From Capsulimonas sp. (GTDB lineage Bacteria > Armatimonadota > Armatimonadia > Armatimonadales > Capsulimonadaceae): a stretch of DNA of 10,918 nucleotides. A program made the position numbers and the translations under genes. The DNA lies in assembly GCA_025963815.1 (NCBI GenBank), contig JAOQAA010000165.1, forward strand, positions 1 to 10,918, written 5' to 3'. Positions 1,074 through 10,918 of this stretch are shown one piece after another (within the stretch, counting starts at the first letter, position 1; every line of letters begins with the position of its first letter). The notes below the pieces were generated by a model. That model did not search any database. It was not told where the DNA came from and saw only the letters and a list, made by a program, of their open reading frames with translations.

Positions 1074-1913
1074 TCAGCTAATCAACGGCAGCACGAGCGT
1101 CGGCGCTTCGATGACGTGGTCGCCGCTCGTTTCCTCCACGGCAGTGCCGATGGCGAAGAATTCGATCACGTGCGCGCCCCAGGCGTGGGTGCGTTCGTGG
1201 ATATTTGCGCCGACGATCCCTTTCGCGCCCAGCTCCTCGGCTTCTTTCTGCATCCGCTCCATCGCCAACTCGCGGCTGTCGTACATGGCCTGGGTGTACT
1301 GAGTCAGCTCGGCGTTCTGGCTGAAGTTACGGACGAAGGATCCGAAGGATTGCACCGCGACATGGTAGACGCAGTTGCCCATGACTAGGCCCAGCGGGCG
1401 GTAGCCGGAGCGCAATAAGATATAGAAATCCTGGCCGGAGAGATCCGAAGTGAAGGGACGGCCGCGCTTGTTTTTGAAGCGGTTCTTATCGCCTCGGTGC
1501 ACGACGGCGGTGCCGATGGCGACAAATTCGGCGATATGGTTGCCCCACTCTTTGTGATTGACTTCCAGGCGTACGCCCACCACGCCGTCCGCGCCAAGCT
1601 GGTGCGCTTCTTCCTCCATGCGGTCCATGGCGAGCTCGCGCGCGTGGTACATCGCCTGAGTCAGCACCGTCATCTCCTGGTTTTTCGACCACGCAGCTTG
1701 CTGGTAGCCGACATGGTAGATCGAGCTGCCGACAACCAGGCCCACCGGGTCGAAGCCGGCCTCCTTGACCAGCAGGAATTCACTCGTGGAGAGGTCGCTG
1801 GTAAAGAGCGTGCGCGATTCACTTGTGCCGCGCATTTCGACAAGCCGCTCGGTGGCGTGCTGCGGGATCGCGGTGATCTTCGGGTCGTTGATATCGTCTG
1901 AATTGAAAGCCAT
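1074..1913 (-). CDS. Double YbjQ-like (DUF74, 'heavy-metal-binding domain') protein
   Basis: The 279-residue protein has two tandem copies of a YbjQ/DUF74-like domain, at about 37-138 and 154-260. Each copy runs FTSDLS, then an (F/Y)xPxGLVxG turn followed by (I/V)YHV, then a helix of the type QAMYxxRELAMxRMxxEA, then LGAxG(V/I)VG, and ends EF(V/F)AIGTAV. Single-domain YbjQ proteins are about 105 residues, small and oligomeric; the 'heavy-metal-binding' label in databases is not backed by any Cys/His site I can see here. There is no signal peptide or membrane segment, so it should be cytoplasmic. I chose the ATG at 1913 because GAGGA lies just upstream; an in-frame TTG at 1931 would add six residues that include this site. 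It lies 46 nt after a related two-domain gene, so they are likely one operon. Function unknown. Confidence 0.88.
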   Translation of the reverse strand: MAFNSDDINDPKITAIPQHATERLVEMRGTSESRTLFTSDLSTSEFLLVKEAGFDPVGLVVGSSIYHVGYQQAAWSKNQEMTVLTQAMYHARELAMDRMEEEAHQLGADGVVGVRLEVNHKEWGNHIAEFVAIGTAVVHRGDKNRFKNKRGRPFTSDLSGQDFYILLRSGYRPLGLVMGNCVYHVAVQSFGSFVRNFSQNAELTQYTQAMYDSRELAMERMQKEAEELGAKGIVGANIHERTHAWGAHVIEFFAIGTAVEETSGDHVIEAPTLVLPLIS

Positions 1914-1917
1914 GGTT

Positions 1918-1922
1918 TCCTC
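1918..1922 (-). promoter_or_regulatory. Ribosome binding site deciding the start at 1913
   Basis: GAGGA on the minus strand lies 4 nt before the ATG at 1913. It supports that start over the upstream in-frame TTG at 1931. The TCCT immediately upstream can pair with AGGA in a short 4-bp hairpin (TCCTCCGAGGA), which might mildly mask the site. Confidence 0.6.
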
Positions 1923-1959
1923 GGAGGACAAGGTTTCTTGTGGGAATTTCGGAAGATCG

Positions 1960-2988
1960 TTATTCGATAGTGGCGTCCTTGGGCGTCGTCATTGAGACGG
2001 GCGTCAGCCGTCCGTCTCGCAGTGAGAGAATGTTGAGAGTAGGGGTAACATGACGCGGCGCGCCGGGGCGGGCGCGGATCGCCGTCCCCAGAATGCTGAT
2101 CACGATATTGTGGTGTTCACGCTCGTAAGCCGGGTCCTCGCCGGGGCCGCTCAGACGAATCTCGTCCAATCGGCGCTCGATCTTGACGCCCGCGACGCCG
2201 TTCGCGCCGTAGGCGCTCGCCTGCTTGTTGAGATGCGCCATCGCTCGAGTCCGTGCTTTGCTGAGTCCCGCGCTCCAGTGCGTCATCTCGACGTTGCTCC
2301 AAGAGCGGTGTACCCACTCGTCCTGCTGCGTCGTGAGCAGGAACCAGGTGCAGTGGCCCCAAACAAATGCGACGGGATCATATCCAGCGCGGCGCAGGGC
2401 GTACCATTCCTGGCCCGAGAGATCGCACATAAATGGCTGCTCCGGCGGACGCCCCGGCCCTTCGACCGCCGTGCCCATCACCTGCACTTCGATCGTCTTG
2501 TCCGCCCACTCATGACGAACCAGCGAGAAACGAACGCCGACTACGCCATGGCCGCCGATCATCTTCAGTTCCTGCGCCATCCGTCCGACGGCGAGGCGGC
2601 ACGCTTCGTTGTAAGCAGTCGAAAGCACAGACACTTCGCAGTCGCCCTGGCTCGACGCGTAGGCCTGTCCGACATGATAGACGGCGCTGCCTGTCACTAT
2701 GCCGCGCGGGTGAAATCCCTCGCGCCGCAAAAGTCCAGCCTCCTCCGGCGCAAGGTTGCTCGTGAACAGAATCTCGGACGCCTCATTGGTCCCAATCTCC
2801 TTCAAGCGCTCAATCGCCTGGATCGGCAGCCCCCCGGCCGCCAGCGCCCGTAAGTCGCTCGCCTGCCGTTTGATCTCAGCCTCGCGATTGGCCTTCGCCA
2901 ATTCGGCGACACGTTCGCGCTCCTGTTTTTGCGCGGCTCGCGCGGCGTCTTCCCCGGGAGATCGGCTCCCAAGTCCAAAAAACGGCAT
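1960..2988 (-). CDS. Double YbjQ-like protein with N-terminal coiled coil
   Basis: A 342-residue paralogue of the next gene downstream. The start MPFFGLGSR is followed by a charged Ala/Glu/Arg helix (about 11-48) that looks like a coiled coil. The first YbjQ-like domain is at about 74-176 (FTSNLA, GxxxxGIVTGSAVYHVG, GGHGVVGVRF, VQVMGTAV), and a second, more diverged one is at about 186-306 (CDLSGQEWYALRRAGYDP, GANGVAGVKI, ISILGTAI). In the second domain the YHV motif is replaced by TWF. Both paralogues end in a PTL-containing hydrophobic tail. I chose the ATG at 2988 because a clear GAGGAG site lies 6 nt upstream; the frame can be extended to 3042 but without a better start. No signal peptide is visible, so it is cytoplasmic. 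The role is unknown; partnership with the downstream paralogue is inferred from the 46-nt gap. Confidence 0.87.
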   Translation of the reverse strand: MPFFGLGSRSPGEDAARAAQKQERERVAELAKANREAEIKRQASDLRALAAGGLPIQAIERLKEIGTNEASEILFTSNLAPEEAGLLRREGFHPRGIVTGSAVYHVGQAYASSQGDCEVSVLSTAYNEACRLAVGRMAQELKMIGGHGVVGVRFSLVRHEWADKTIEVQVMGTAVEGPGRPPEQPFMCDLSGQEWYALRRAGYDPVAFVWGHCTWFLLTTQQDEWVHRSWSNVEMTHWSAGLSKARTRAMAHLNKQASAYGANGVAGVKIERRLDEIRLSGPGEDPAYEREHHNIVISILGTAIRARPGAPRHVTPTLNILSLRDGRLTPVSMTTPKDATIE

Positions 2989-2994
2989 CGGTGT

Positions 2995-3000
2995 CTCCTC
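2995..3000 (-). promoter_or_regulatory. Ribosome binding site deciding the start at 2988
   Basis: GAGGAG on the minus strand, 6 nt before the ATG at 2988. It is the strongest Shine-Dalgarno in the left half of the window, and it rules out the longer in-frame start at 3042. Confidence 0.75.
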
Positions 3001-3042
3001 TTTCCCTGGCGTCGCCTCTGGGCAAGTCAGCGATCGGCGCAA

Positions 3043-3523: not shown

Positions 3524-5167
3524 CTACGCCCCCAGCGCCGCGCTCACGATCTGCTGCGCCTCTTCTTGAATGGCCTTCAAGTGCTCCGCGCCTTTAAAGC
3601 TTTCGGCGTAGATCTTGTAGATCGGCTCCGTGCCGGACGGACGCGCGGCGAACCAGCCATTTTCGGTGACGACTTTCAGGCCGCCAATGGGCGCGTCGTT
3701 GCCGGGGGCGCGGGTGAGCTTGGCGGTGATCTTGTCGCCGGCGAGGGTATCGGCGGTCACTTTGTCCGGGGTGAGGTTCGCCAGGATCTTGCCCTGCTCG
3801 ACCGTGGCGGGGGCGTCGATGCGCTCGTAGACGGGGCTGCCGAACTTGGCTTCCATTTCTTGATAGTGCTGGCCCGGATCGCGGCCGGTCTTGGCGGTGA
3901 TCTCGGCGGCGAGCAGGTCCAAAATGATGCCGTCTTTGTCCGTGGTCCAGACGGTTCCGTCGATGCGCAGGAAGGATGCGCCCGCGCTTTCCTCGCCGCC
4001 GAAGCCGTAGCTGCCGTCAACTAAGCCGTCGACGAACCATTTGAAGCCGACGGGGACTTCCGCGAGCCGGCGTCCGAGGCCGGCGGCGACGCGGTCAATC
4101 ATGGAGCTTGAGACCAGCGTCTTGCCCACGGCGGCGTCCGCGCGCCAGTTTGGCCGGTTTTGAAAGAGATAGGAGATCGCGACCGCCAAATAATGGTTCG
4201 GGTTCAGCAGGCCGACGCTTGGGGCGACCACGCCGTGCCGATCCGTATCCGGGTCATTGCCGAAGGCGATGTCGAAGCGGTCCTTCAGGCCAATCAAGCT
4301 CGCCATGGCGTACGGCGACGAGCAGTCCATGCGGATCTTGCCGTCCTTATCGACCGTCATAAACGAGAAGGTCGGATCGACATACGGGTTCACGATCTCG
4401 ATATTCAGGCCGTACTTCTCGATGATCGGCCGCCAGTAGCCGACCCCCGCGCCGCCCATTGGGTCGACGCCGATCTTGAGGCCCGAGTTCTTAATCGCGT
4501 CCATATCGATCACGTTCGCCAGATCATCCACATAAGGCGTCACATAATCGTACTGGTGTACGTTATCCAGCGAGAGAGCGTGGTCAATGCAATAGCGCTT
4601 GACGGACTTCAGGCCCTCGCGCAGTAGTTCGTTTGCGCGGTCCTGCACGATCTTCGTCGTTCCCGTGTCCGCCGGGCCGCCTGAAGGGGGATTGTACTTG
4701 AAGCCGCCGTCGCCGGGCGGGTTGTGCGAGGGCGTGATTACCACGCCGTCCGCCAGCCCTTCCGTGCGTCCTTTATTATAAGTGAGAATGGCGTGCGAGA
4801 TGACCGGGGTGGGGGTGTACCCGCGTCCCTCCTGCACGAAGACTTCGACGCCGTTCGCTGCAAGCACCTCAATCGCTGTCGTCAGCGCCGGCTCGGATAG
4901 CGCATGCGTGTCCATTCCCAGGTACAGCGGCCCCGTCGTTCCCTGCGACGCCCGGTACTCGGCGATCGCCTGTGAGATCGCCAGGATATGATCCTCATTG
5001 AATGTGCTGGCGAACGATGTTCCGCGATGCCCCGAAGTGCCGAACGCGACGGCGTGTGCGGGATTATTGGGGTCGGGCTTCTGCGTGTAATACGCCGAAA
5101 TCAAACGGGGAATATTGACGAGCATCTCCCGGGGAGCGGGCTTCCCGGCGAGTTCGGAGACGGCCAT
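3524..5167 (-). CDS. pgm: Phosphoglucomutase, alpha-D-glucose-specific
   Basis: This enzyme interconverts glucose 1-phosphate and glucose 6-phosphate in the cytoplasm, linking glycogen and trehalose turnover and sugar-nucleotide synthesis to glycolysis. The 547-residue protein is collinear with the 546-residue E. coli Pgm. All landmarks are intact: FGTSGHRG at 42-49, the catalytic phosphoserine loop TPSHNPP at 145-151 (Ser147), the Mg-binding loop DPDTDR at 305-310 (Asp305, 307, 309), the sugar-specificity loop GEESAGASF at 391-399, and the phosphate-binding loop RPSGTEP at 509-515. I chose the ATG at 5167 because [11 protein letters not shown] aligns with the start of the E. coli enzyme; an ATG at 5176 and a GTG at 5182 are in frame but would add residues. 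A 126-nt gap with a possible promoter separates it from the upstream genes, so it may be its own unit. Element B follows it. Confidence 0.97.
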
Positions 5168-5293: not shown

Positions 5294-6235
5294 TTATGGC
5301 AAGGCGTATACCTTCACGGTCAGCGCTTCGGTTGGGGAATTGTCGCCGTAGCCGCCGTCCACATCGTAAAACATGAACTGGATCGGCTTTCCTGTGCCTG
5401 CAAAGAGGAGATCATACGTATGGTCCTGGCGCCATGGACCCCACCAGAGGGCATGGGGAGTTTTTGAAAGGTCAGCTTCGTCCACTCCGATTCCGTAGTC
5501 CGTATTGCCGTCGCCGACATCCACCTGCCCCACGCCATCGGCGCGGTAGTCCATATACTCGGCATCGCCCTGGCCAAGCCCCCCGCCGCCGACACGGGCC
5601 TGCCCGATCGCTTGAAGGAGATAGACCGATGATTTGCGGGTCGTTAGGATCGTCGGGACAATCTTCTGAAGGACCGGAATCTGAAGCGTCTCCAGGGGTG
5701 CAGGGAGCGTCGAAAGTCGGTAGAGTGAGACCGCGATCGCGCCGCGATCTGAGAAGGCGGTCTCAGATCGTCCGGCGGGAGTAACGAGTTTCAGGGAGAG
5801 CGGCCCGCCGCTGCCAGTGACGATCATGTAGTAAGTATGGCTCTCACGATCCCCGCCGATCCACTTCATCCGCGACGGTCGGATCCCCGGCGCTGTGCGG
5901 AGAGACTTAAGGCCGACATCAATTCCAACATCCACGCCGTCTGCGACATCCGCCCCATGGCCGCTGTACTCCGCATCCACCGCGCCGACGCCTGAACCCG
6001 CTGCCCCGGATGCTTTCAACAGGTAAAGTTCGCCCTGATCGAGGCGGCTCTTGAAAGTTGCCCCCTCGTGGGGGACAACTCGGACAGACTCAAGAGGAGA
6101 AGGGAAGCGCGTATATTGCGTCGCCTGGCTCGGCCCGGCGAATACCGTGACGGCGATGCCCCCAAGAGCGGCGATAAGCAGCGATTCGCAGGTTCGGGAG
6201 CCGACACGCACGGATCGATAAGGTTGGATTTTCAT
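5294..6235 (-). CDS. Secreted protein with two copies of a Gly/Asp-rich beta-type module
   Basis: No named family is recognised. Of the 313 residues, about 1-39 are a long signal peptide (basic start, then LLIAALGGIAVTVFA, then a SQA-type site). The rest is an internal duplication, about 47-173 and 182-312. Each copy has (L/V)YLL(K/Q)A, a Gly-rich stretch with DAEY, an Asp/Gly-rich loop (ADGVDVGIDVG in copy 1; VDVGDGNTDYGIGVDEAD in copy 2), a Trp followed by HTY, a G(S/T)G(G/K)P turn, and a final strand of the type AxxVxxYxL. The copy-2 ending FYDVDGGYGDNSPTEALTVKVY resembles beta-sandwich binding modules, and the acidic loops could hold calcium; both ideas are inference. The gap to the upstream YEWREF gene is 73 nt. 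The Shine-Dalgarno is weak; a TATAAC lies 8 nt before the ATG at 6235. Confidence 0.8.
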   Translation of the reverse strand: MKIQPYRSVRVGSRTCESLLIAALGGIAVTVFAGPSQATQYTRFPSPLESVRVVPHEGATFKSRLDQGELYLLKASGAAGSGVGAVDAEYSGHGADVADGVDVGIDVGLKSLRTAPGIRPSRMKWIGGDRESHTYYMIVTGSGGPLSLKLVTPAGRSETAFSDRGAIAVSLYRLSTLPAPLETLQIPVLQKIVPTILTTRKSSVYLLQAIGQARVGGGGLGQGDAEYMDYRADGVGQVDVGDGNTDYGIGVDEADLSKTPHALWWGPWRQDHTYDLLFAGTGKPIQFMFYDVDGGYGDNSPTEALTVKVYALP

Positions 6236-6308
6236 ATCCCCATGTTATACGCCCGGAGCCGTTCAACCTGCCTGAATCTTCAAATGGCGCCTTTTTAGTT
6301 GGGTCCAT

Positions 6309-7136
6309 TTACGATTTTGGATCCAGCGGGATATTCTTGAACTCCCGCCACTCGTAAGAACGTGTCTGAAATACGATCTTCTGGACATCCCCCAACTGCA
6401 TCCCGGGGAAGCTGATCGTCTGTGTGTACATCCTTCCTGAGAGTTCGCCGGCAAGTTTAACGCCGGGGTGAAGACGCCCCTGCCGGTCCATGGCGGCGAA
6501 GCGGCTTTGATAATCGGCGCCGACATTGGTATTCGAAAGAGTAAACCCAACGGAGTTGTTCAATTGACTTGGCGGTGAAATTCCCAGAGTGATTGATTTC
6601 GCGCCCCATGGCCGCGTGATGAAGCGTACGCCTCCGCCGCCTCCAGGAGCGATCTCCGCTATCGACTTCCAGGATTTGCCGGCTACTCCGACGCGGATCG
6701 ATGCGGCGTGAAGCCTGCTGGGGAATGTCGCCGCGATCCCAAGGGCGCTGGGGCGGCGTGATTGAAAAGTAACCCATCGGTCGAACGAGTGAGACCCTGG
6801 AGCGGTGATTTGAACGGTGGCGTTGTTTGGGATTCCCACGCAGCGAAAGACAAAATCGCGCGCCTTATCATCACCTTGCGCGAGAAGAGGCTTCGATTTT
6901 GGCCGCGACGGAGCGTGGGAGATCGGCGCCCCCTGAGCGCTCCACCAATGCTGTCCGTCGGATGGGCTGTACGAGACGCCAACTAGCTGAACTTTCCCGC
7001 CGCCGGAGTATCGGACCTCGCTCGTTCCATTCGTCTGGGGGGCAGCCTTCTGTTCTTTTGCGTCCAGCGGCGGCGCGGCCGGGGCGAAAAGGCTCAGAGC
7101 CAGAATGGCCGCCCAAACGCCCCATTTATCATGCAT
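6309..7136 (-). CDS. Exported stand-alone copy of the M56 sensor domain (YEWREF family), copy 1
   Basis: A 275-residue protein: signal peptide about 1-26 (core VWAAILALSLFA, LDA-KE cleavage-type site), then one domain spanning the rest. The domain aligns end to end with residues about 369-598 of the M56 protease encoded at 8825-10621 and with the protein at 7940-8791. Shared landmarks are YSGGGKVQLVGV near the start, WWSA, ARDFVF, a central SIRVGVA strand, SITLGIS, RFAAMDRQG, and the closing KIVFQxRxYEWREFKNIPL, with YEWREF at 261-266. It has no protease, transmembrane or enzymatic motif. GGAGAG lies 8 nt before the ATG at 7136. It is clearly closer to the 7940-8791 copy than to the protease domain, so a stand-alone form probably duplicated after separating from the protease. 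Proposed role: free binding partner, decoy or ligand presenter for the sensor; not demonstrated. Confidence 0.85.
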   Translation of the reverse strand: MHDKWGVWAAILALSLFAPAAPPLDAKEQKAAPQTNGTSEVRYSGGGKVQLVGVSYSPSDGQHWWSAQGAPISHAPSRPKSKPLLAQGDDKARDFVFRCVGIPNNATVQITAPGSHSFDRWVTFQSRRPSALGIAATFPSRLHAASIRVGVAGKSWKSIAEIAPGGGGGVRFITRPWGAKSITLGISPPSQLNNSVGFTLSNTNVGADYQSRFAAMDRQGRLHPGVKLAGELSGRMYTQTISFPGMQLGDVQKIVFQTRSYEWREFKNIPLDPKS

Positions 7137-7183
7137 TCCTCGAACTCTCCATCTCTTGTGCTGGACGTGTGTCGCCGGCGCGC

Positions 7184-7828
7184 TTACGGCGTCAGCGATA
7201 TGCGGACTTCCTTGCCTTTATGGAGGCTCCAGTTCTTGAGTGTGACAACGAGATCCTTCGGCGTCATCCCCGACGAGACGGCGAAGAGGAGGGTGATTTT
7301 TTCGCCCGATCCGGGCAAGAGGGGTTTTGTGACCCAGCCGCCATGCGAGAGCATGTCGCAGACAATAGGCGGATACGAGTTGCTCTCGTTGTCGGTCAGG
7401 GCGGTCTTTTGATCGTCGCTGTAGAAGTCGAGCTGCTCCGTCGCCTTTGCCTGGGCGTTCTTCGCATAACAATCGATGGCGACGAAAGTAAGGCCCTGTT
7501 TTGGAGTAAACGTGTGCGAGGCGTCGTCGTACTCCGCGTCGGAATGCCACTTGGCATAGTCCTGTTCACTCGACGGGACCTTCAGGGTGTAAGAATCGAC
7601 TTGCTGAAATCCTATCACCTGAAAGCGCCACTGCCCGGTGAAGAGCATGTCGCCGACCTTGCCCTTTAGGCCCTCGACCTGGTTCGCTCCGCCGGCAGGC
7701 TTCGCCGGCTTGGCCTTGCTCGGCTTAGGCTTCGCTTTGGCGTCAGCGATGGAGAGAGGGGAGAACGCCGCGCAGGCGGCGAGGGCGGCGCACAGGAACG
7801 CGGCGCTTCGGAGTGAGATGACTTTCAA
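7184..7828 (-). CDS. Exported DUF4352-like protein, possible lipoprotein
   Basis: A 214-residue protein. The N-terminus has a hydrophobic core (AAFLCAALAAC) ending in LAAC, which fits a lipobox with Cys19; an alternative signal-peptidase I site follows ADA at about residue 30. A Lys/Pro/Ala-rich linker (31-46) leads to a single domain from about 58 to 214. That domain opens with GDMLFTGQWRFQVIGF, has TFVAIDCYAKNA in the middle (114-125) and ends with a GEKITLLFAV strand and LVVTLKN. This pattern fits the immunoglobulin-like DUF4352 fold, common in exported proteins of unknown role. The start is TTG at 7828, since the next Met is at residue 60 and would remove the signal; AAGGA lies 7 nt upstream. 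It sits between the two YEWREF genes, 47 nt from the downstream one, so it is probably part of the same locus. Confidence 0.82.
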   Translation of the reverse strand: MKVISLRSAAFLCAALAACAAFSPLSIADAKAKPKPSKAKPAKPAGGANQVEGLKGKVGDMLFTGQWRFQVIGFQQVDSYTLKVPSSEQDYAKWHSDAEYDDASHTFTPKQGLTFVAIDCYAKNAQAKATEQLDFYSDDQKTALTDNESNSYPPIVCDMLSHGGWVTKPLLPGSGEKITLLFAVSSGMTPKDLVVTLKNWSLHKGKEVRISLTP

Positions 7829-7835
7829 CGGAGAG

Positions 7836-7840
7836 TCCTT
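7836..7840 (-). promoter_or_regulatory. Ribosome binding site supporting a TTG start
   Basis: AAGGA on the minus strand lies 7 nt before the TTG at 7828. No ATG or GTG lies near enough to keep the signal peptide, so this site decides the start. Confidence 0.6.
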
Positions 7841-7939
7841 TCTTCAGCCCCTATCTTACTGGTTGTGGGCTATGGCGCGATGCGAATGCGTCCCTATTTT
7901 GCATTGAGCCCTAACAATCCTGCGCGCGGCTTGGAATTA

Positions 7940-8791
7940 TTACTTTGGCTCCAGCGGAATATCGTGAAATTCGCGCCATTCATAGGGACGTATTTGGAAA
8001 ACGATTTTCTGGATGTCCGCAAGATTGATATCTTTGAAATTGATCGTCTGGACCACCTCGGAACCAGTGAGTTCGGCATACAAAATATTTGCTGCGTGGA
8101 TGTGTCCCTGACGATCGACTGCGGCAAAGCGAGTCTGATAGTTCATCCCGAGATCGGAGTTTATCACCGTAAATCTGGGGCGTCCGTGGAGCATAGTTGC
8201 TGAGAAGATGCCGAGTGTTATGCTGGTAGCGCCCCAAGGCTGCCTGCTCATCCGAAGACCAACGCGGCTGGACGGGCTCAAGTTGCCGATAGAGGTCCAG
8301 GCTTTTTTCGCGATCCCTATCCGGATCGACGCCGTGCGGCTGCCAAGTGGGAAGGTCGCCGCGACACGCATCGCACTCGCTTTGTGACGCATCACGGGAA
8401 TCCAGTCGTCGGAAGACTGCGATCCCAACACATCTATCACTACGGCGGCGTCCATGGGTAAGCCCGTACGGACGAAGACGAACTCACGAGCGATTGACTG
8501 ATTATTCTCAAGAAGGTGGGGCCTGAAGTCGGCGCGCGCAGGAGCATGCGGGAGCGCCGCGCCACTGGCGCTCCACCAGCTCTGTCCCTCCGCGGGGCTC
8601 ACGGCGACGCCGATGAGCTGCACCTTGCCCCCGCCCGAGTAACGGACCACGCTCGTCGTTCGGACGGTATTCTGACCCTTTGCTTCCAACCGCTGTGTGG
8701 CGGCCAGACCGAAAACGCACTGCACCAGAACAACGACGCCCCCTGGCCACACGGCGTTCATTGCCCTGATCTTCTCACGATTTGTCAGCAC
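7940..8791 (-). CDS. Exported stand-alone copy of the M56 sensor domain (YEWREF family), copy 2
   Basis: A 283-residue protein with a signal peptide at about 1-37 (basic NREKIR start, core VVVLVQCVFGLAA), followed by one domain homologous to the C-terminal part of the M56 protease just upstream. Landmarks are YSGGGKVQLIGV, WWSASG, AREFVF, SIRIGIA, a Trp-Gly-Ala-x-SITLGI strand, RFAAVDRQG, and KIVFQIRPYEWREF near the end (YEWREF at 270-275). I chose the GTG at 8791, which has AAAGGA 8 nt upstream and supplies the positive charges of the signal peptide; the ATG at 8761 would remove them. It lies 33 nt after the protease gene, so cotranscription is very likely. The 148-nt region downstream up to the next start holds only the next gene's leader. 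Function as sensor-accessory or ligand-binding protein is inferred from homology and position. Confidence 0.85.
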   Translation of the reverse strand: MLTNREKIRAMNAVWPGGVVVLVQCVFGLAATQRLEAKGQNTVRTTSVVRYSGGGKVQLIGVAVSPAEGQSWWSASGAALPHAPARADFRPHLLENNQSIAREFVFVRTGLPMDAAVVIDVLGSQSSDDWIPVMRHKASAMRVAATFPLGSRTASIRIGIAKKAWTSIGNLSPSSRVGLRMSRQPWGATSITLGIFSATMLHGRPRFTVINSDLGMNYQTRFAAVDRQGHIHAANILYAELTGSEVVQTINFKDINLADIQKIVFQIRPYEWREFHDIPLEPK

Positions 8792-8799
8792 TGCTATTA

Positions 8800-8805
8800 T
8801 CCTTT
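8800..8805 (-). promoter_or_regulatory. Ribosome binding site supporting a GTG start
   Basis: AAAGGA on the minus strand, 8 nt before the GTG at 8791. The alternative ATG at 8761 has only weaker purine tracts (GAGAAG, AGGG) upstream. Confidence 0.55.
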
Positions 8806-8824
8806 CGCTCCTTGCTGACGGCGT

Positions 8825-10621
8825 CTATTTCTGAGGCTCCAGCGGCAGGTTTTTGAACTCGCGCCATTCGTACGGACGCGCCTGAAATACAATCTTCTTC
8901 ACATCCGAAATCTTCATCCCCTCAAAGTGGAGCGATTGCATTTGTGTCGTTCCGGAGACCCCGCTGCTTGTTCCCTTTCCGACATGAACGATATTGTGTT
9001 GATCGATAGCCACCACGCGTGTCGCTCCGTCCACAACAGTATTCGTGACGGTGAGCCCTGCGCTTCCAGAAAACAAGCTTAGATCGGAAACTCCGATCGT
9101 CACGTTGTGTCCGCGCCAGGATAGTGATCCCATACTCAGACCCCACGGGTCGAATTCATTCAGAGGTTCCCATGGGCCGGCCGCCAGACCAACACGAACT
9201 GAGGTTGTACGCGTGTCGCTGGGAAGCAGGGCGTTAACGGCGACTGTCGTTACGTCTTTGCTGGCGTTGGTCCACATTCCGCCGGATGTTTCACCCGGGA
9301 CGTCTGTCGCGATGCCGGCGTCGATTGGCGCGCCAATCACACGAAAGGCGAATTCACGCGCCGTATATTTCCCTGTGAACCCCAAACTACCATGGGGGTT
9401 TGTGTCGATCGGCGGCGCGCTTAGGCGCTTGCCACCGGCATTCCACCAGGTCTTTCCTGGAGCAGGGTATTCGGTGATTCCAAGAAGCTCAACCCTGCCG
9501 CCGGTGTAAACGACCTCACTTGTTGGAGCTGTGTCCGAATCTGCCGCTTCTTCTTTCGCCGCCAGACGCAGCGCGGAGATCGGCAGGACAATCGCCAGCG
9601 CCAGCAGCATCCCGCTGATCGCCCATTTTCGGGTGATCGCTCGGCGGCTCAATCCACTGGCTAGCACGGCTCTGATTCTTCCTTCGGTCTCGTTGGGCAG
9701 CGCCATGGCGATGGCGGCGCGCGGCGGCCTGGCGCCTTCCGGGATCGAGCGCAGCACATCGATCAGGCGCTGGGCGTAGTCGGCGGGGGCGACACCGGCG
9801 TTCAGCACGCAGTCGTCGCAGGCGCGCTCGCTGGTCTCGCGGATTTGCCGCGTCGCCATCCAGACCAGGGGATGGAACCAGTAAAGCGCGCACATGATCT
9901 GCGTCGCGATCCGGGTCGGCCAGTCCCAGCGCTGGATGTGGGCGAACTCATGGAGCAGCGCGGCGCGGACGCACTCGTCCGGCCAGTCTGCCGATTGCGA
10001 GGGAAGCAGCACGATCGGCCGCCGGGCGCCCCACATAATCGGCGCTGCAATCCCGCTGCGCGCATCGGCGACACAGACCTCGATATGACGTGCGATCCGC
10101 ATGCTCGCTTGGGCCTCCTGAGCGATGCGCGTCATTCGACCATCCAGCGCGTGGCTGTTGCGCCATGCCTGGTCCACCAGACGCAGCCCCACGGCGATTT
10201 GAACGACGATCCACAGTGTCCCAGTCAGCCATACCAAGCCAAGAACGAACGGCCAGTTCCAGGGCCGCCGATCGTTCGACAGCGCGGAGTGGGAGCCTTG
10301 TTCGATTTTGGAACTCGCAATGGCGGGCGCCATCTCGTGAGCGTCATTGGATGAGACTGGAGACACGGCGCTGGGCTGCGTCATCAATTTTACAATCGGC
10401 GAAGCGGCCGCGCTCGAAAGAGGAGCCCGAACGCGCCATGCCGGCCCAAGGACGGAAAGAAGCGGCAGAACGAGCGCGCCGGCCAGCGCCGTCGTCCAGA
10501 GAATATTGCGCGCGGACGCCGATGCGCGGCGAAGCAAGAAGTTCAGCGCGAAGGCGCTTATCAGAAGAATCGTAATCTTGCCGAGCAGCATGGGAGCGCT
10601 CTGCATCGAGAATTCCATCAT
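8825..10621 (-). CDS. BlaR1-like M56 membrane metalloprotease with a YEWREF sensor domain
   Basis: A 598-residue signal transducer of the BlaR1/MecR1 type (peptidase M56). Four membrane segments are visible at about 13-30, 40-60, 124-146 and 334-352. The cytoplasmic protease lies before the last one, with the zinc motif HEFAH at 224-228 and the third ligand candidate Glu265 in ERACDD. In the family, an outside signal activates the protease, which leads to loss of the BlaI repressor. The C-terminal region (about 369-598) should be outside the membrane. Here it is not the penicillin-binding domain of BlaR1: I see no SxxK or KTG set, but a beta-rich, Trp-rich domain closing with RPYEWREF at 582-589. 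The same domain occurs as free exported proteins in the next genes. The ATG at 10621 overlaps the repressor gene by 4 nt. The signal it senses is unknown. Confidence 0.92.
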   Translation of the reverse strand: MMEFSMQSAPMLLGKITILLISAFALNFLLRRASASARNILWTTALAGALVLPLLSVLGPAWRVRAPLSSAAASPIVKLMTQPSAVSPVSSNDAHEMAPAIASSKIEQGSHSALSNDRRPWNWPFVLGLVWLTGTLWIVVQIAVGLRLVDQAWRNSHALDGRMTRIAQEAQASMRIARHIEVCVADARSGIAAPIMWGARRPIVLLPSQSADWPDECVRAALLHEFAHIQRWDWPTRIATQIMCALYWFHPLVWMATRQIRETSERACDDCVLNAGVAPADYAQRLIDVLRSIPEGARPPRAAIAMALPNETEGRIRAVLASGLSRRAITRKWAISGMLLALAIVLPISALRLAAKEEAADSDTAPTSEVVYTGGRVELLGITEYPAPGKTWWNAGGKRLSAPPIDTNPHGSLGFTGKYTAREFAFRVIGAPIDAGIATDVPGETSGGMWTNASKDVTTVAVNALLPSDTRTTSVRVGLAAGPWEPLNEFDPWGLSMGSLSWRGHNVTIGVSDLSLFSGSAGLTVTNTVVDGATRVVAIDQHNIVHVGKGTSSGVSGTTQMQSLHFEGMKISDVKKIVFQARPYEWREFKNLPLEPQK

Positions 10622-10918
10622 TCGTCGGTTCCTCCCGTCGTCTCGTCTTGAAGGCGCTCGCCCTTGGCCTCTTCCGCCCGAGTCTGGTGAATGAGTTCCT
10701 CCAATCGCCCAAGCTCGTCTTCAGTTGGCCGCGCGTGCTGGTTCGCGAGCAGGGTCGCCACGGCGCGCTCCACACTGCCGCCGAAAAACGTCTGAACGAC
10801 ATTGTCAATCGCCGACTTCGCGACTGTGGTCCAGCTTTCCGTCGGCGTATAGACATACTTCGATCCGACTTCCGTGTGGCTGATCTGTCCCTTTTCCTCC
10901 AGAATCCGCAGAAACGTC
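10618..10918 (-). CDS. BlaI/MecI-family repressor, C-terminal part (cut by right window edge)
   Basis: The minus strand is open from the window edge to a TGA at 10618-10620 and encodes the last 99 residues. The visible part starts TFLRILEEKGQISHTEVGS followed by KYVYTP, which matches the end of the recognition helix and the wing of BlaI-type winged-helix repressors. It continues with the dimerisation region AKSAIDNVVQTFFGGSVERAVATLL and a Glu/Arg-rich tail. Family members are about 120-130 residues, so roughly the first quarter is missing, including most of the DNA-binding helices. The stop overlaps the protease start as ATGA, the typical layout of a repressor paired with its M56 antirepressor. 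The promoter and operator should lie beyond the right edge. Confidence 0.92.
   Translation of the reverse strand, partial: TFLRILEEKGQISHTEVGSKYVYTPTESWTTVAKSAIDNVVQTFFGGSVERAVATLLANQHARPTEDELGRLEELIHQTRAEEAKGERLQDETTGGTDE
10631..10635 (-). promoter_or_regulatory. Ribosome binding site of the M56 protease gene
   Basis: GGAGG on the minus strand, 9 nt before the ATG at 10621, inside the end of the repressor gene. It supports the first of the two adjacent ATG codons (10621 and 10618) as the start. Confidence 0.65.

What the first reader, a model, noticed from the sequence alone, without database searches (positions are those of the whole stretch)
6309..10621. Sensor domain of a BlaR1-like protease also encoded twice as free exported proteins
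The C-terminal extracellular domain of the M56 protease (about residues 369-598) recurs as the whole mature part of two signal-peptide proteins directly downstream. Seen in sequence: the same order of motifs (Y-S/T-GG, WW-x-A, AR-x-F-x-F, an SxRxG strand, xxLG(I/V)S, (A/V)xD(R/Q), KIVFQ-x-R-x-YEWREF) in all three. Known: BlaI/M56 pairs release a regulon when the protease senses an outside signal. Inference: the free copies may compete for, deliver, or titrate the ligand, or form a complex with the membrane-bound copy. I know of no described system of this layout.
Basis: partly seen in the sequence, partly recalled or inferred. Interest (0 to 1): 0.72.

Follow-up and report, generated by a model that had tools for sequence, protein, structure and literature searches.

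The report
Soluble copies of a membrane sensor
In a bacterium known here only from an incomplete genome assembly, a switch operon made of a repressor and a membrane protease also encodes two exported copies of the protease's own outside sensor domain; a second, separately evolved case suggests that such free sensor copies can be useful to these switches, although most relatives do without them.

Summary
The outer domain of the M56 protease (residues 362-598) is homologous over its length to two exported proteins of the same operon, F1 and F2 (blastp 4e-45 and 7e-51; F1 to F2 4e-85). An unrelated, older gene lies between them.
The domain, here called YEW, is in no Pfam family. It is the outer part of BlaI-linked M56 proteases (Armatimonadota, Planctomycetota), of six kinases and one ECF sigma factor, and occurs as free exported proteins.
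Free copies are usually not near M56: 17 of 19 loci have none in the stretch examined. The window's layout is an exception. A second one (L128) arose independently from its own locus. F2's signal peptide resembles the protease's last membrane helix.
The exact operator-like dyad occurs twice in the held genome, both before BlaI genes: a paralogue, and the one that most likely continues into the window.
Most likely mechanism (inferred): ligand-triggered BlaI cleavage induces soluble sensor copies that bind the same ligand or partner and damp the signal. Ligand and function are untested.

The parts
10618..10918 (-). BlaI/Penicillinase_R-type repressor, C-terminal 99 residues; N-terminal part off the window
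   Evidence: frame read; PF03965 48.2 bits at C518:10684-10917; its stop overlaps the M56 start
8825..10621 (-). M56 (BlaR1-like) membrane protease, 598 aa, HEFAH at residue 224, hydrophobic segments peaking at 12-30, 40-58, 126-144 and 333-351
   Evidence: PF05569 8.9e-29; hydropathy and motif
8828..9538 (-). outer sensor domain of the M56 protease (YEW domain, residues 362-598)
   Evidence: homology with F1/F2, profile match, nearly all-beta model pLDDT 79
9566..9631 (-). last membrane helix and juxtamembrane stretch of M56 (about residues 331-352), similar to the signal peptide of F2
   Evidence: score 49 against 524 cross-locus control pairs, best 41; orthologous pair scores 62
7940..8791 (-). 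F1: signal peptide plus free YEW domain (283 aa; possible start at 8761)
7184..7828 (-). DUFX: unrelated exported 214-aa protein, older neighbour of the phosphomutase gene; probably a bystander
   Evidence: scores with M56 and F1 at shuffle level; syntenic in G001, which lacks the M56/F1/F2 block here
6309..7136 (-). F2: signal peptide plus free YEW domain (275 aa)
   Evidence: orthologue P0002 in another Capsulimonas sp.; model pLDDT 76

Best explanation
The block BlaI - M56(YEW) - F1 - F2, with DUFX caught inside, is a self-contained, autoregulated signalling operon. Shown by sequence: the sensor domain, its two exported copies, the shared orientation, and an operator-like dyad over the -10 box before the BlaI that most likely continues into the window. 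Inferred: when a ligand binds the outer YEW domain, the M56 protease cleaves BlaI and the operon is expressed. F1 and F2 then fill the periplasm or cell surface with soluble YEW domains that bind the same ligand (or the sensor's own partner), so the output mirrors the sensor and damps or buffers the signal. Origin, inferred: F2 arose by copying the 3' end of the M56 gene from its last membrane helix onward, the helix becoming a signal peptide; F1 is its paralogue. A parallel event produced the second locus, L128.
For: Homology of the three domains. The window's domains and their orthologues form one branch (SH-aLRT 97), and the L128 copies with M56 L117 another (96), next to two further M56 sensors. 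F2 signal peptide like the M56 last helix. Exact GTGCTAA-N5-TTAGCAC occurs at two places in the own genome, both BlaI promoters; at C641 it lies on a TTGACA-17-TAATAT promoter. In the single-contig same-genus genome G001 the core dyad with up to 1 mismatch occurs at two loci, both before BlaI-M56(YEW). No such dyad in the window with up to 3 mismatches and no sigma-70-like consensus on the minus strand of 6000-10918, which fits one transcript. All 22 Armatimonadota M56-YEW genes examined have a BlaI-like gene in the same stretch. M56 and F2 have orthologues in another Capsulimonas sp. (87.8% and 88.7% over the domain), for both of which the longest contig is given as 49,840 bases, so they are probably on one contig.
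Against: No expression, ligand or binding data. Free YEW copies mostly live without M56 (17 of 19 loci) and most M56-YEW loci lack free copies (20 of 22), so free copies are not needed for signalling. The helix/signal-peptide similarity is not seen for F1 (score 21) or for the L128 copies (17, 16). No F1 orthologue of the other Capsulimonas sp. is among the 4 proteins found with F1. The operator pattern with up to 2 mismatches is rarer than its backward control (6 against 15; 4 against 22 in G001 with up to 1 mismatch), so only the exact sites carry weight. The C641 dyad also scores as a terminator-like hairpin followed by a T-rich tail, and the C299 dyad is followed by TTTTT, so a terminator or attenuator role is not excluded. 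The link from that promoter to the window rests on a contig join by 9 shared bases (no overlap of 10 or more) and on synteny. The genome is 69% complete, so operator sites may be missing. The promoter scan is a simple consensus (1.5 sites expected by chance, 1 found, on the other strand), and the 111-base gap between F1 and DUFX could hold a promoter it cannot see.
Confidence: 0.42

Rival explanations
1. Co-receptor or decoy subunit: F1 and F2 bind the M56 protein itself (sensor-sensor pairing), raising or lowering its activity, without catching a ligand of their own.
For: Same domain, same operon. BlaR1 is described as a domain-swapped dimer whose sensor domains face each other and can be cut off by signal peptidase (PMC9834060, passages seen), so a free sensor domain beside a membrane-bound one has a precedent.
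Against: No complex was modelled; F1 and F2 are only 34-38% identical to the M56 sensor, and 20 of 22 M56-YEW loci do without free copies.
Confidence: 0.2
2. Delivery: F1 and F2 are ligand-binding proteins that hand a ligand to the membrane sensor or to an importer or enzyme, like periplasmic binding proteins feeding a sensor.
For: Exported single domains of the same family as the sensor.
Against: No recognisable transporter or enzyme gene inside the block; the flanking phosphomutase and YbjQ-type genes are conserved in G001 without the block.
Confidence: 0.13
3. Unconnected paralogues: YEW is a common exported module, and F1/F2 are duplicates that happen to stay beside their source and serve some other cell-surface role.
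For: Free YEW proteins are usually unlinked to M56 (17 of 19 loci); own-genome copies on C353 sit among other genes, no M56 or BlaI detected on that 10,957-base contig.
Against: Two independent local expansions beside M56-YEW genes, M56 and F2 orthologues in a second species, and a position probably downstream of the BlaI operator.
Confidence: 0.25

Closest known systems
BlaI-BlaR1 / MecI-MecR1 (M56 protease) beta-lactam sensing
   Same: BlaI-type repressor gene overlapping an M56 protease gene, HExxH motif, C-terminal outer sensor domain, dyad over the repressor's own promoter (general layout of the known system partly recalled).
   Different: Sensor model is nearly all-beta with Ig-like matches, and shows no class D beta-lactamase motifs; the co-oriented downstream genes are copies of the sensor, with no beta-lactamase or PBP gene recognised.
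BlaR1 sensor domain and class D beta-lactamases
   Same: Sensor domain and a free exported protein share one fold (relation stated in PMC9834060, passages seen).
   Different: There the free relative is an enzyme; here the free proteins are same-operon paralogues in which no HExxH or K[TS]G motif was found.
RsgI anti-sigma factors of Clostridium thermocellum
   Same: Recalled: sensor modules of a membrane regulator resemble modules of the regulated exported proteins. Only the search listing was seen.
   Different: Different regulator, unrelated domains, outputs are enzymes (recalled).
Free YEW proteins of Armatimonadota (e.g. L061, L069, L074, C353 pair)
   Same: Same domain as a single-domain protein, mostly with an N-terminal hydrophobic stretch by eye.
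   Different: No M56 gene in the stretches examined.

Membership tests
BlaI-M56 one-component proteolytic switch | BlaI-type repressor next to an M56 protease | tested here: met
   PF03965 and PF05569 over their cut-offs, genes overlap
BlaI-M56 one-component proteolytic switch | HExxH zinc-protease motif between membrane segments, C-terminal outer domain | tested here: met
   HEFAH at residue 224, hydrophobic segments 126-144 and 333-351, YEW after that
BlaI-M56 one-component proteolytic switch | operator dyad at the repressor's own promoter | tested here: inconclusive
   dyad over the -10 box before the C641-end BlaI, which most likely continues into the window; the same dyad also scores as terminator-like; binding not tested
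BlaI-M56 one-component proteolytic switch | signal-dependent cleavage of the repressor | not testable with these tools
   needs experiment
BlaR1/MecR1 beta-lactam receptor | full-length match to the BlaR1 model, sensor included | tested here: not met
   NF000326 73.5 bits against a cut-off of 400, only residues 28-282 aligned
BlaR1/MecR1 beta-lactam receptor | penicilloyl-serine transferase motifs in the sensor (SxxK with K[TS]G; motifs recalled) | tested here: not met
   no K[TS]G in M56C, F1 or F2; no SxxK in F1, one each in M56C (position 211) and F2 (position 50), not at matching places
YEW sensor domain (named here) | profile match over most of the domain | tested here: met
   M56C 6e-65, F1 5e-70, F2 2e-78 with the A3 profile, which contains them
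Ig-like beta-sandwich domains | all-beta model with Ig-like best structural matches | tested here: inconclusive
DUF5643 (PF18705) | Pfam match over the cut-off | tested here: not met
   one relative (L074:7908-8594) at 15 bits against a cut-off of 34; none of the 24 A3 members matched it

The most novel reading that the evidence does not exclude
A class of self-referential switches: a repressor-protease pair whose outputs are soluble copies of its own sensor domain, made by turning the receptor's last membrane helix into a signal peptide, so that the cell titrates its own signal; it has evolved at least twice in Armatimonadota.
Probability: 0.25. Interest if true: 0.72.

Novelty: new variant of a known kind. 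Interest (0 to 1): 0.5.

Why it matters
BlaI/M56 pairs are many in this genome: nine M56 matches and ten BlaI matches, two of the latter probably halves of one gene. Their signals are unknown to me. A sensor module shared by M56 proteases, protein kinases and an ECF sigma factor, and also available as a soluble exported protein, gives a direct route to a ligand: F1 and F2 can be purified and screened without handling a membrane protease. If the soluble copies damp the switch, it would be a bacterial counterpart of soluble decoy receptors.

Tried and rejected
General rule 'free YEW next to BlaI/M56': rejected. Only 2 of 19 free-copy loci and 2 of 22 M56-YEW loci show it. A wider self-similarity test of 45 M56 C-terminal regions against the other ORFs of their stretches found free copies only in the window and in L128; the L132 hits are between two M56 genes, and the L170 hit (132 aa, at residues 3327-3455 of a 4,347-aa protein) lies outside its YEW matches.

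Beta-lactam sensor: rejected by the model match and motifs.

DUFX as a system component: unlikely, since it is a neighbour of the phosphomutase gene in G001 without the block, with relatives in 13 of 61 genomes, the own one included.

Known fold or function of YEW: no Pfam match over a cut-off to the domain in F1, F2, the proteins (whose only matches over a cut-off are the sigma-factor regions of L068) or the 24 A3 members; no close PDB relative by sequence (best E 0.22, FimG). The best Foldseek match of the F2 model is an IgA-Fc chain at E 9.9e-4 with TM 0.23. 3fbq is the top VIA match for F2 but not for M56C, so I do not build on it. That 3fbq belongs to the DUF4179/DUF5643 type was a guess from memory and was not tested.

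Database reach: the F1 search found 4 proteins, F1 and F2 themselves included, the M56 sensor search 2 and the 24-row profile 6 among the 7,995 candidates scored. The first genome-contig scan gave 49 pattern stretches and no confirmed relative.

Literature: searches for BlaR1/M56 with Armatimonadetes (13 of 13 listed), BlaR1 sensor and class D (20 of 31 listed), M56 with BlaI and planctomycet (0 papers), BlaR1 with signal peptidase and shedding (10 of 17), RsgI (8 of 20), Capsulimonas corticalis (8 of 13), peptidase M56 with Planctomycetes and sensor (10 of 789) and BlaI with M56 family and genomic context (10 of 184). None of the listed titles and abstract beginnings describes this layout; unlisted papers were not seen. 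Only PMC9834060 was opened (passages). The library lacks most subscription journals.

Limits: the tree is a quick search with SH-aLRT only; the profile searches scored at most 8 or 9 candidates per genome, so counts are lower bounds; A3 was built partly hits; local gene finding used an M56 profile of 9 own-genome proteins and a BlaI profile of only 3, so genes can be missed; many stretches end within 5-7 kb of the gene and some within 0.3 kb. 'Free' means a YEW match in an ORF of up to 345 aa without M56; one of the 24 (L135) is a weak partial match (3e-04). 10 of the 59 stretches hold no YEW match. The helix/signal-peptide control cut its helix windows by position, not by prediction; with that same recipe the window pair scores 74, but that window includes the first domain residues. 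One search read the own-genome loci on the + strand only and was redone on both strands.
Full report
WHAT IS THERE. All genes of interest are on the minus strand. In order of transcription: the last 99 residues of a BlaI-type repressor; an M56 protease of 598 aa whose start overlaps the BlaI stop; F1, 283 aa, 33 bases further on; DUFX, 214 aa, 111 bases further on; F2, 275 aa, 47 bases further on. The protease has HEFAH at residue 224 and hydrophobic segments peaking at 12-30, 40-58, 126-144 and 333-351; F1, F2 and DUFX each start with a hydrophobic segment. The part of the protease after its last helix is homologous to F1 and F2 over about 240 residues: M56-F2 37%, 7e-51; M56-F1 34%, 4e-45; F1-F2 47%, 4e-85; DUFX scores at shuffle level against M56 and F1. 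The nearest named proteins are from a Capsulimonas sp., a genus of Armatimonadota; that the window's genome belongs to this phylum is inferred from that.

THE DOMAIN. I call it YEW after its YEWREF-type end. No Pfam family matched it over a cut-off. A profile of 24 diverse copies (A3) finds it in 25 of 291 genomes of the phylum (the first profile, A1, found 15 of 291; A3 includes hits, and at most 8 or 9 candidates per genome were scored). I examined 59 stretches: the window, three early own-genome stretches, 20 fetched and 35. They hold 22 M56-YEW genes in 22 loci, all with a BlaI-like gene in the same stretch; 24 free YEW proteins of up to 345 aa in 19 loci; and 13 longer non-M56 proteins in 11 loci; 10 stretches, mostly own-genome M56 or BlaI loci, hold no YEW match. 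One of the longer proteins, in the same-genus genome G001, has ECF sigma-factor regions at its N-terminus. A scan of named genomes gave 23 loci: 15 with an M56 protease (BlaI-like gene detected beside 13), 6 with protein-kinase domains, one with an AhpC/TSA domain and one fragment; none holds a free YEW protein of up to 345 aa. One of the 15, L189, is the same DNA as L060 of the first set. By their record titles most are Planctomycetota, with one Verrucomicrobiales, one Pontiellaceae, one record titled Deltaproteobacteria (the fragment) and L189, an uncultured Chthonomonas. YEW is therefore a general outer sensor module carried by several kinds of membrane regulators.

HOW USUAL IS THE LAYOUT. 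It is unusual. Of the 19 loci with free copies, 2 also hold an M56 gene: the window and L128 (genome G124); 17 do not (20 of 24 proteins). Of 22 M56-YEW loci, 2 have free copies. Testing 45 M56 C-terminal regions, with YEW or without, against the other ORFs of their stretches gave the same two. In the single-contig same-genus genome G001 the hits were four M56 proteins and one ECF protein, none free. Some stretches end close to the gene, so misses are possible.

TWO INDEPENDENT ORIGINS. In the tree of 78 domains the window's M56, F1 and F2 domains with their Capsulimonas sp. orthologues form one branch (SH-aLRT 97), and the three L128 domains with the M56 of L117 form another (96) next to two more M56 sensors (96, quick search, no bootstrap). 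In L128 the two free copies lie upstream of BlaI, not downstream of M56. L117 shares the BlaI-M56 pair and a downstream gene with the same stretch near its start, but shows no free copy in its 1.6 kb of sequence upstream of BlaI. L128 therefore suggests free copies made from M56 sensors, not the reverse.

HOW F2 AROSE. The BLAST match of M56 and F2 starts at M56 residue 332, in the last helix. Helix/signal-peptide segments alone score 49; 524 pairs of M56 helix regions and N-terminal stretches of free proteins from different loci have mean 21.0, sd 4.4, maximum 41 (the control windows were longer, which favours the control, but were cut by position). The orthologous pair P0006/P0002 scores 62 with a shared RKW...AKE frame. 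F1 (21) and the L128 copies (17, 16) show no such trace. The simplest reading is that F2 began as a copy of the 3' end of the M56 gene with the helix reused as a signal peptide.

LOCUS HISTORY. The window is contig C518 of a 69%-complete, 734-contig genome. Contig C641 ends inside a BlaI gene whose last 9 bases equal the first 9 of the window's reverse strand, in frame; there is no overlap of 10 or more. In G001 one stretch carries relatives of the C641 genes including BlaI1 and M56-1, then the neighbours of the window (the 5294-6235 gene, DUFX, phosphomutase, two YbjQ genes, a gene that looks DUF72-like by eye), without BlaI2, M56-2, F1 or F2. So the contigs are very probably neighbours, the block BlaI2-M56-2-F1-F2 is an addition relative to G001, and DUFX is an old resident, though its order with the 5294-6235 gene differs. 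The G001 M56-1 has a different outer part (no YEW match there among the G001 rows), whereas M56-1 of C641 carries YEW, so sensor domains have also been exchanged or replaced at one locus.

REGULATION. Upstream of the C641-end BlaI, a 16-base-arm dyad containing GTGCTAA-TATTG-TTAGCAC overlaps the -10 box of a TTGACA-17-TAATAT promoter, flanked by an outer inverted repeat. The exact 19-base pattern occurs at two places in the held genome, this one and the BlaI of C299, whose M56 also carries YEW. With up to 2 mismatches there are 6 sites against 15 for the backward control. In G001 the 17-base core with up to 1 mismatch occurs at 4 sites in two loci, both before BlaI-M56(YEW) (backward control 22). 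The window holds no such site with up to 3 mismatches (0.12 expected), and the one sigma-70-like consensus in 6000-10918 is on the plus strand (1.5 expected). Against this reading: the C641 dyad with its T-rich tail is also listed as terminator-like, and the C299 dyad is followed by five T. Since the -10 box lies inside the dyad, and at C299 the neighbouring gene points away, I prefer an operator, but a terminator or attenuator is not excluded. F1, DUFX and F2 most probably depend on the BlaI promoter. Binding by BlaI was not tested.

MECHANISM. Shown by sequence: shared domain, shared orientation, dyad at the presumed promoter, second independent case. From established knowledge of BlaR1: ligand binding outside leads to BlaI cleavage, and the BlaR1 sensor domain is related to class D beta-lactamases and can itself be cut off by signal peptidase (PMC9834060, passages seen). 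Inferred: F1 and F2 are the induced output and bind what the sensor binds, buffering the signal or neutralising the ligand. Rivals are direct pairing with the membrane sensor, ligand delivery, and unconnected paralogues; they are listed with refuting results.

VERDICT. It is a known kind of switch (BlaI-M56) with a sensor domain outside Pfam and an unusual probable output. None of the papers listed in my searches (most lists were capped) describes it by title or abstract beginning, and the library holds open-licence papers only.

Noticed in passing
L068:6631-8781 (G001): A 717-aa protein with ECF sigma-factor regions at the N-terminus and a YEW domain at 298-556: a sigma factor that seems to carry its own outer sensor; the membrane segment between them was judged by eye.
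   Followed up: partly
L173, L177, L181, L184, L186, L188: Protein kinases of Planctomycetota, Verrucomicrobiota and Kiritimatiellota carry the YEW domain after the kinase domain; L184 also has polysaccharide-export domains.
   Followed up: partly
L163:6846-9389 against L002:5130-7733: M56-1 at the same syntenic place has YEW plus a tail in the window's genome but an unrelated outer part in G001: sensor replacement at one locus.
   Followed up: partly
C641 end (L164:13793-13829) and C299 (L003 about 3680-3720): The dyads before two BlaI genes are long hairpins followed by T-rich sequence, so operator and terminator/attenuator features coincide.
   Followed up: partly
window 5294-6235, minus strand: Exported 313-aa protein with two similar halves by eye (glycine- and aspartate-rich); no Pfam or PDB sequence match.
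   Followed up: partly
window 1074-3042, minus strand: Two neighbouring YbjQ-family genes, each with two matched stretches, conserved beside phosphomutase in G001.
   Followed up: no
L060, L063, L065: M56 proteases with two YEW matches in tandem (the second of L065 is weak, 1e-03).
   Followed up: no
L079, L110, L112, L115: Related 618-656-aa non-M56 proteins with one or two YEW matches, forming one branch (SH-aLRT 100).
   Followed up: no
L166:11863-14755 (G001): Downstream of an M56-YEW gene, in the same direction: genes that look by eye like an AraC-type regulator, an isochorismatase and a DJ-1/PfpI protein; possible targets of that switch.
   Followed up: no
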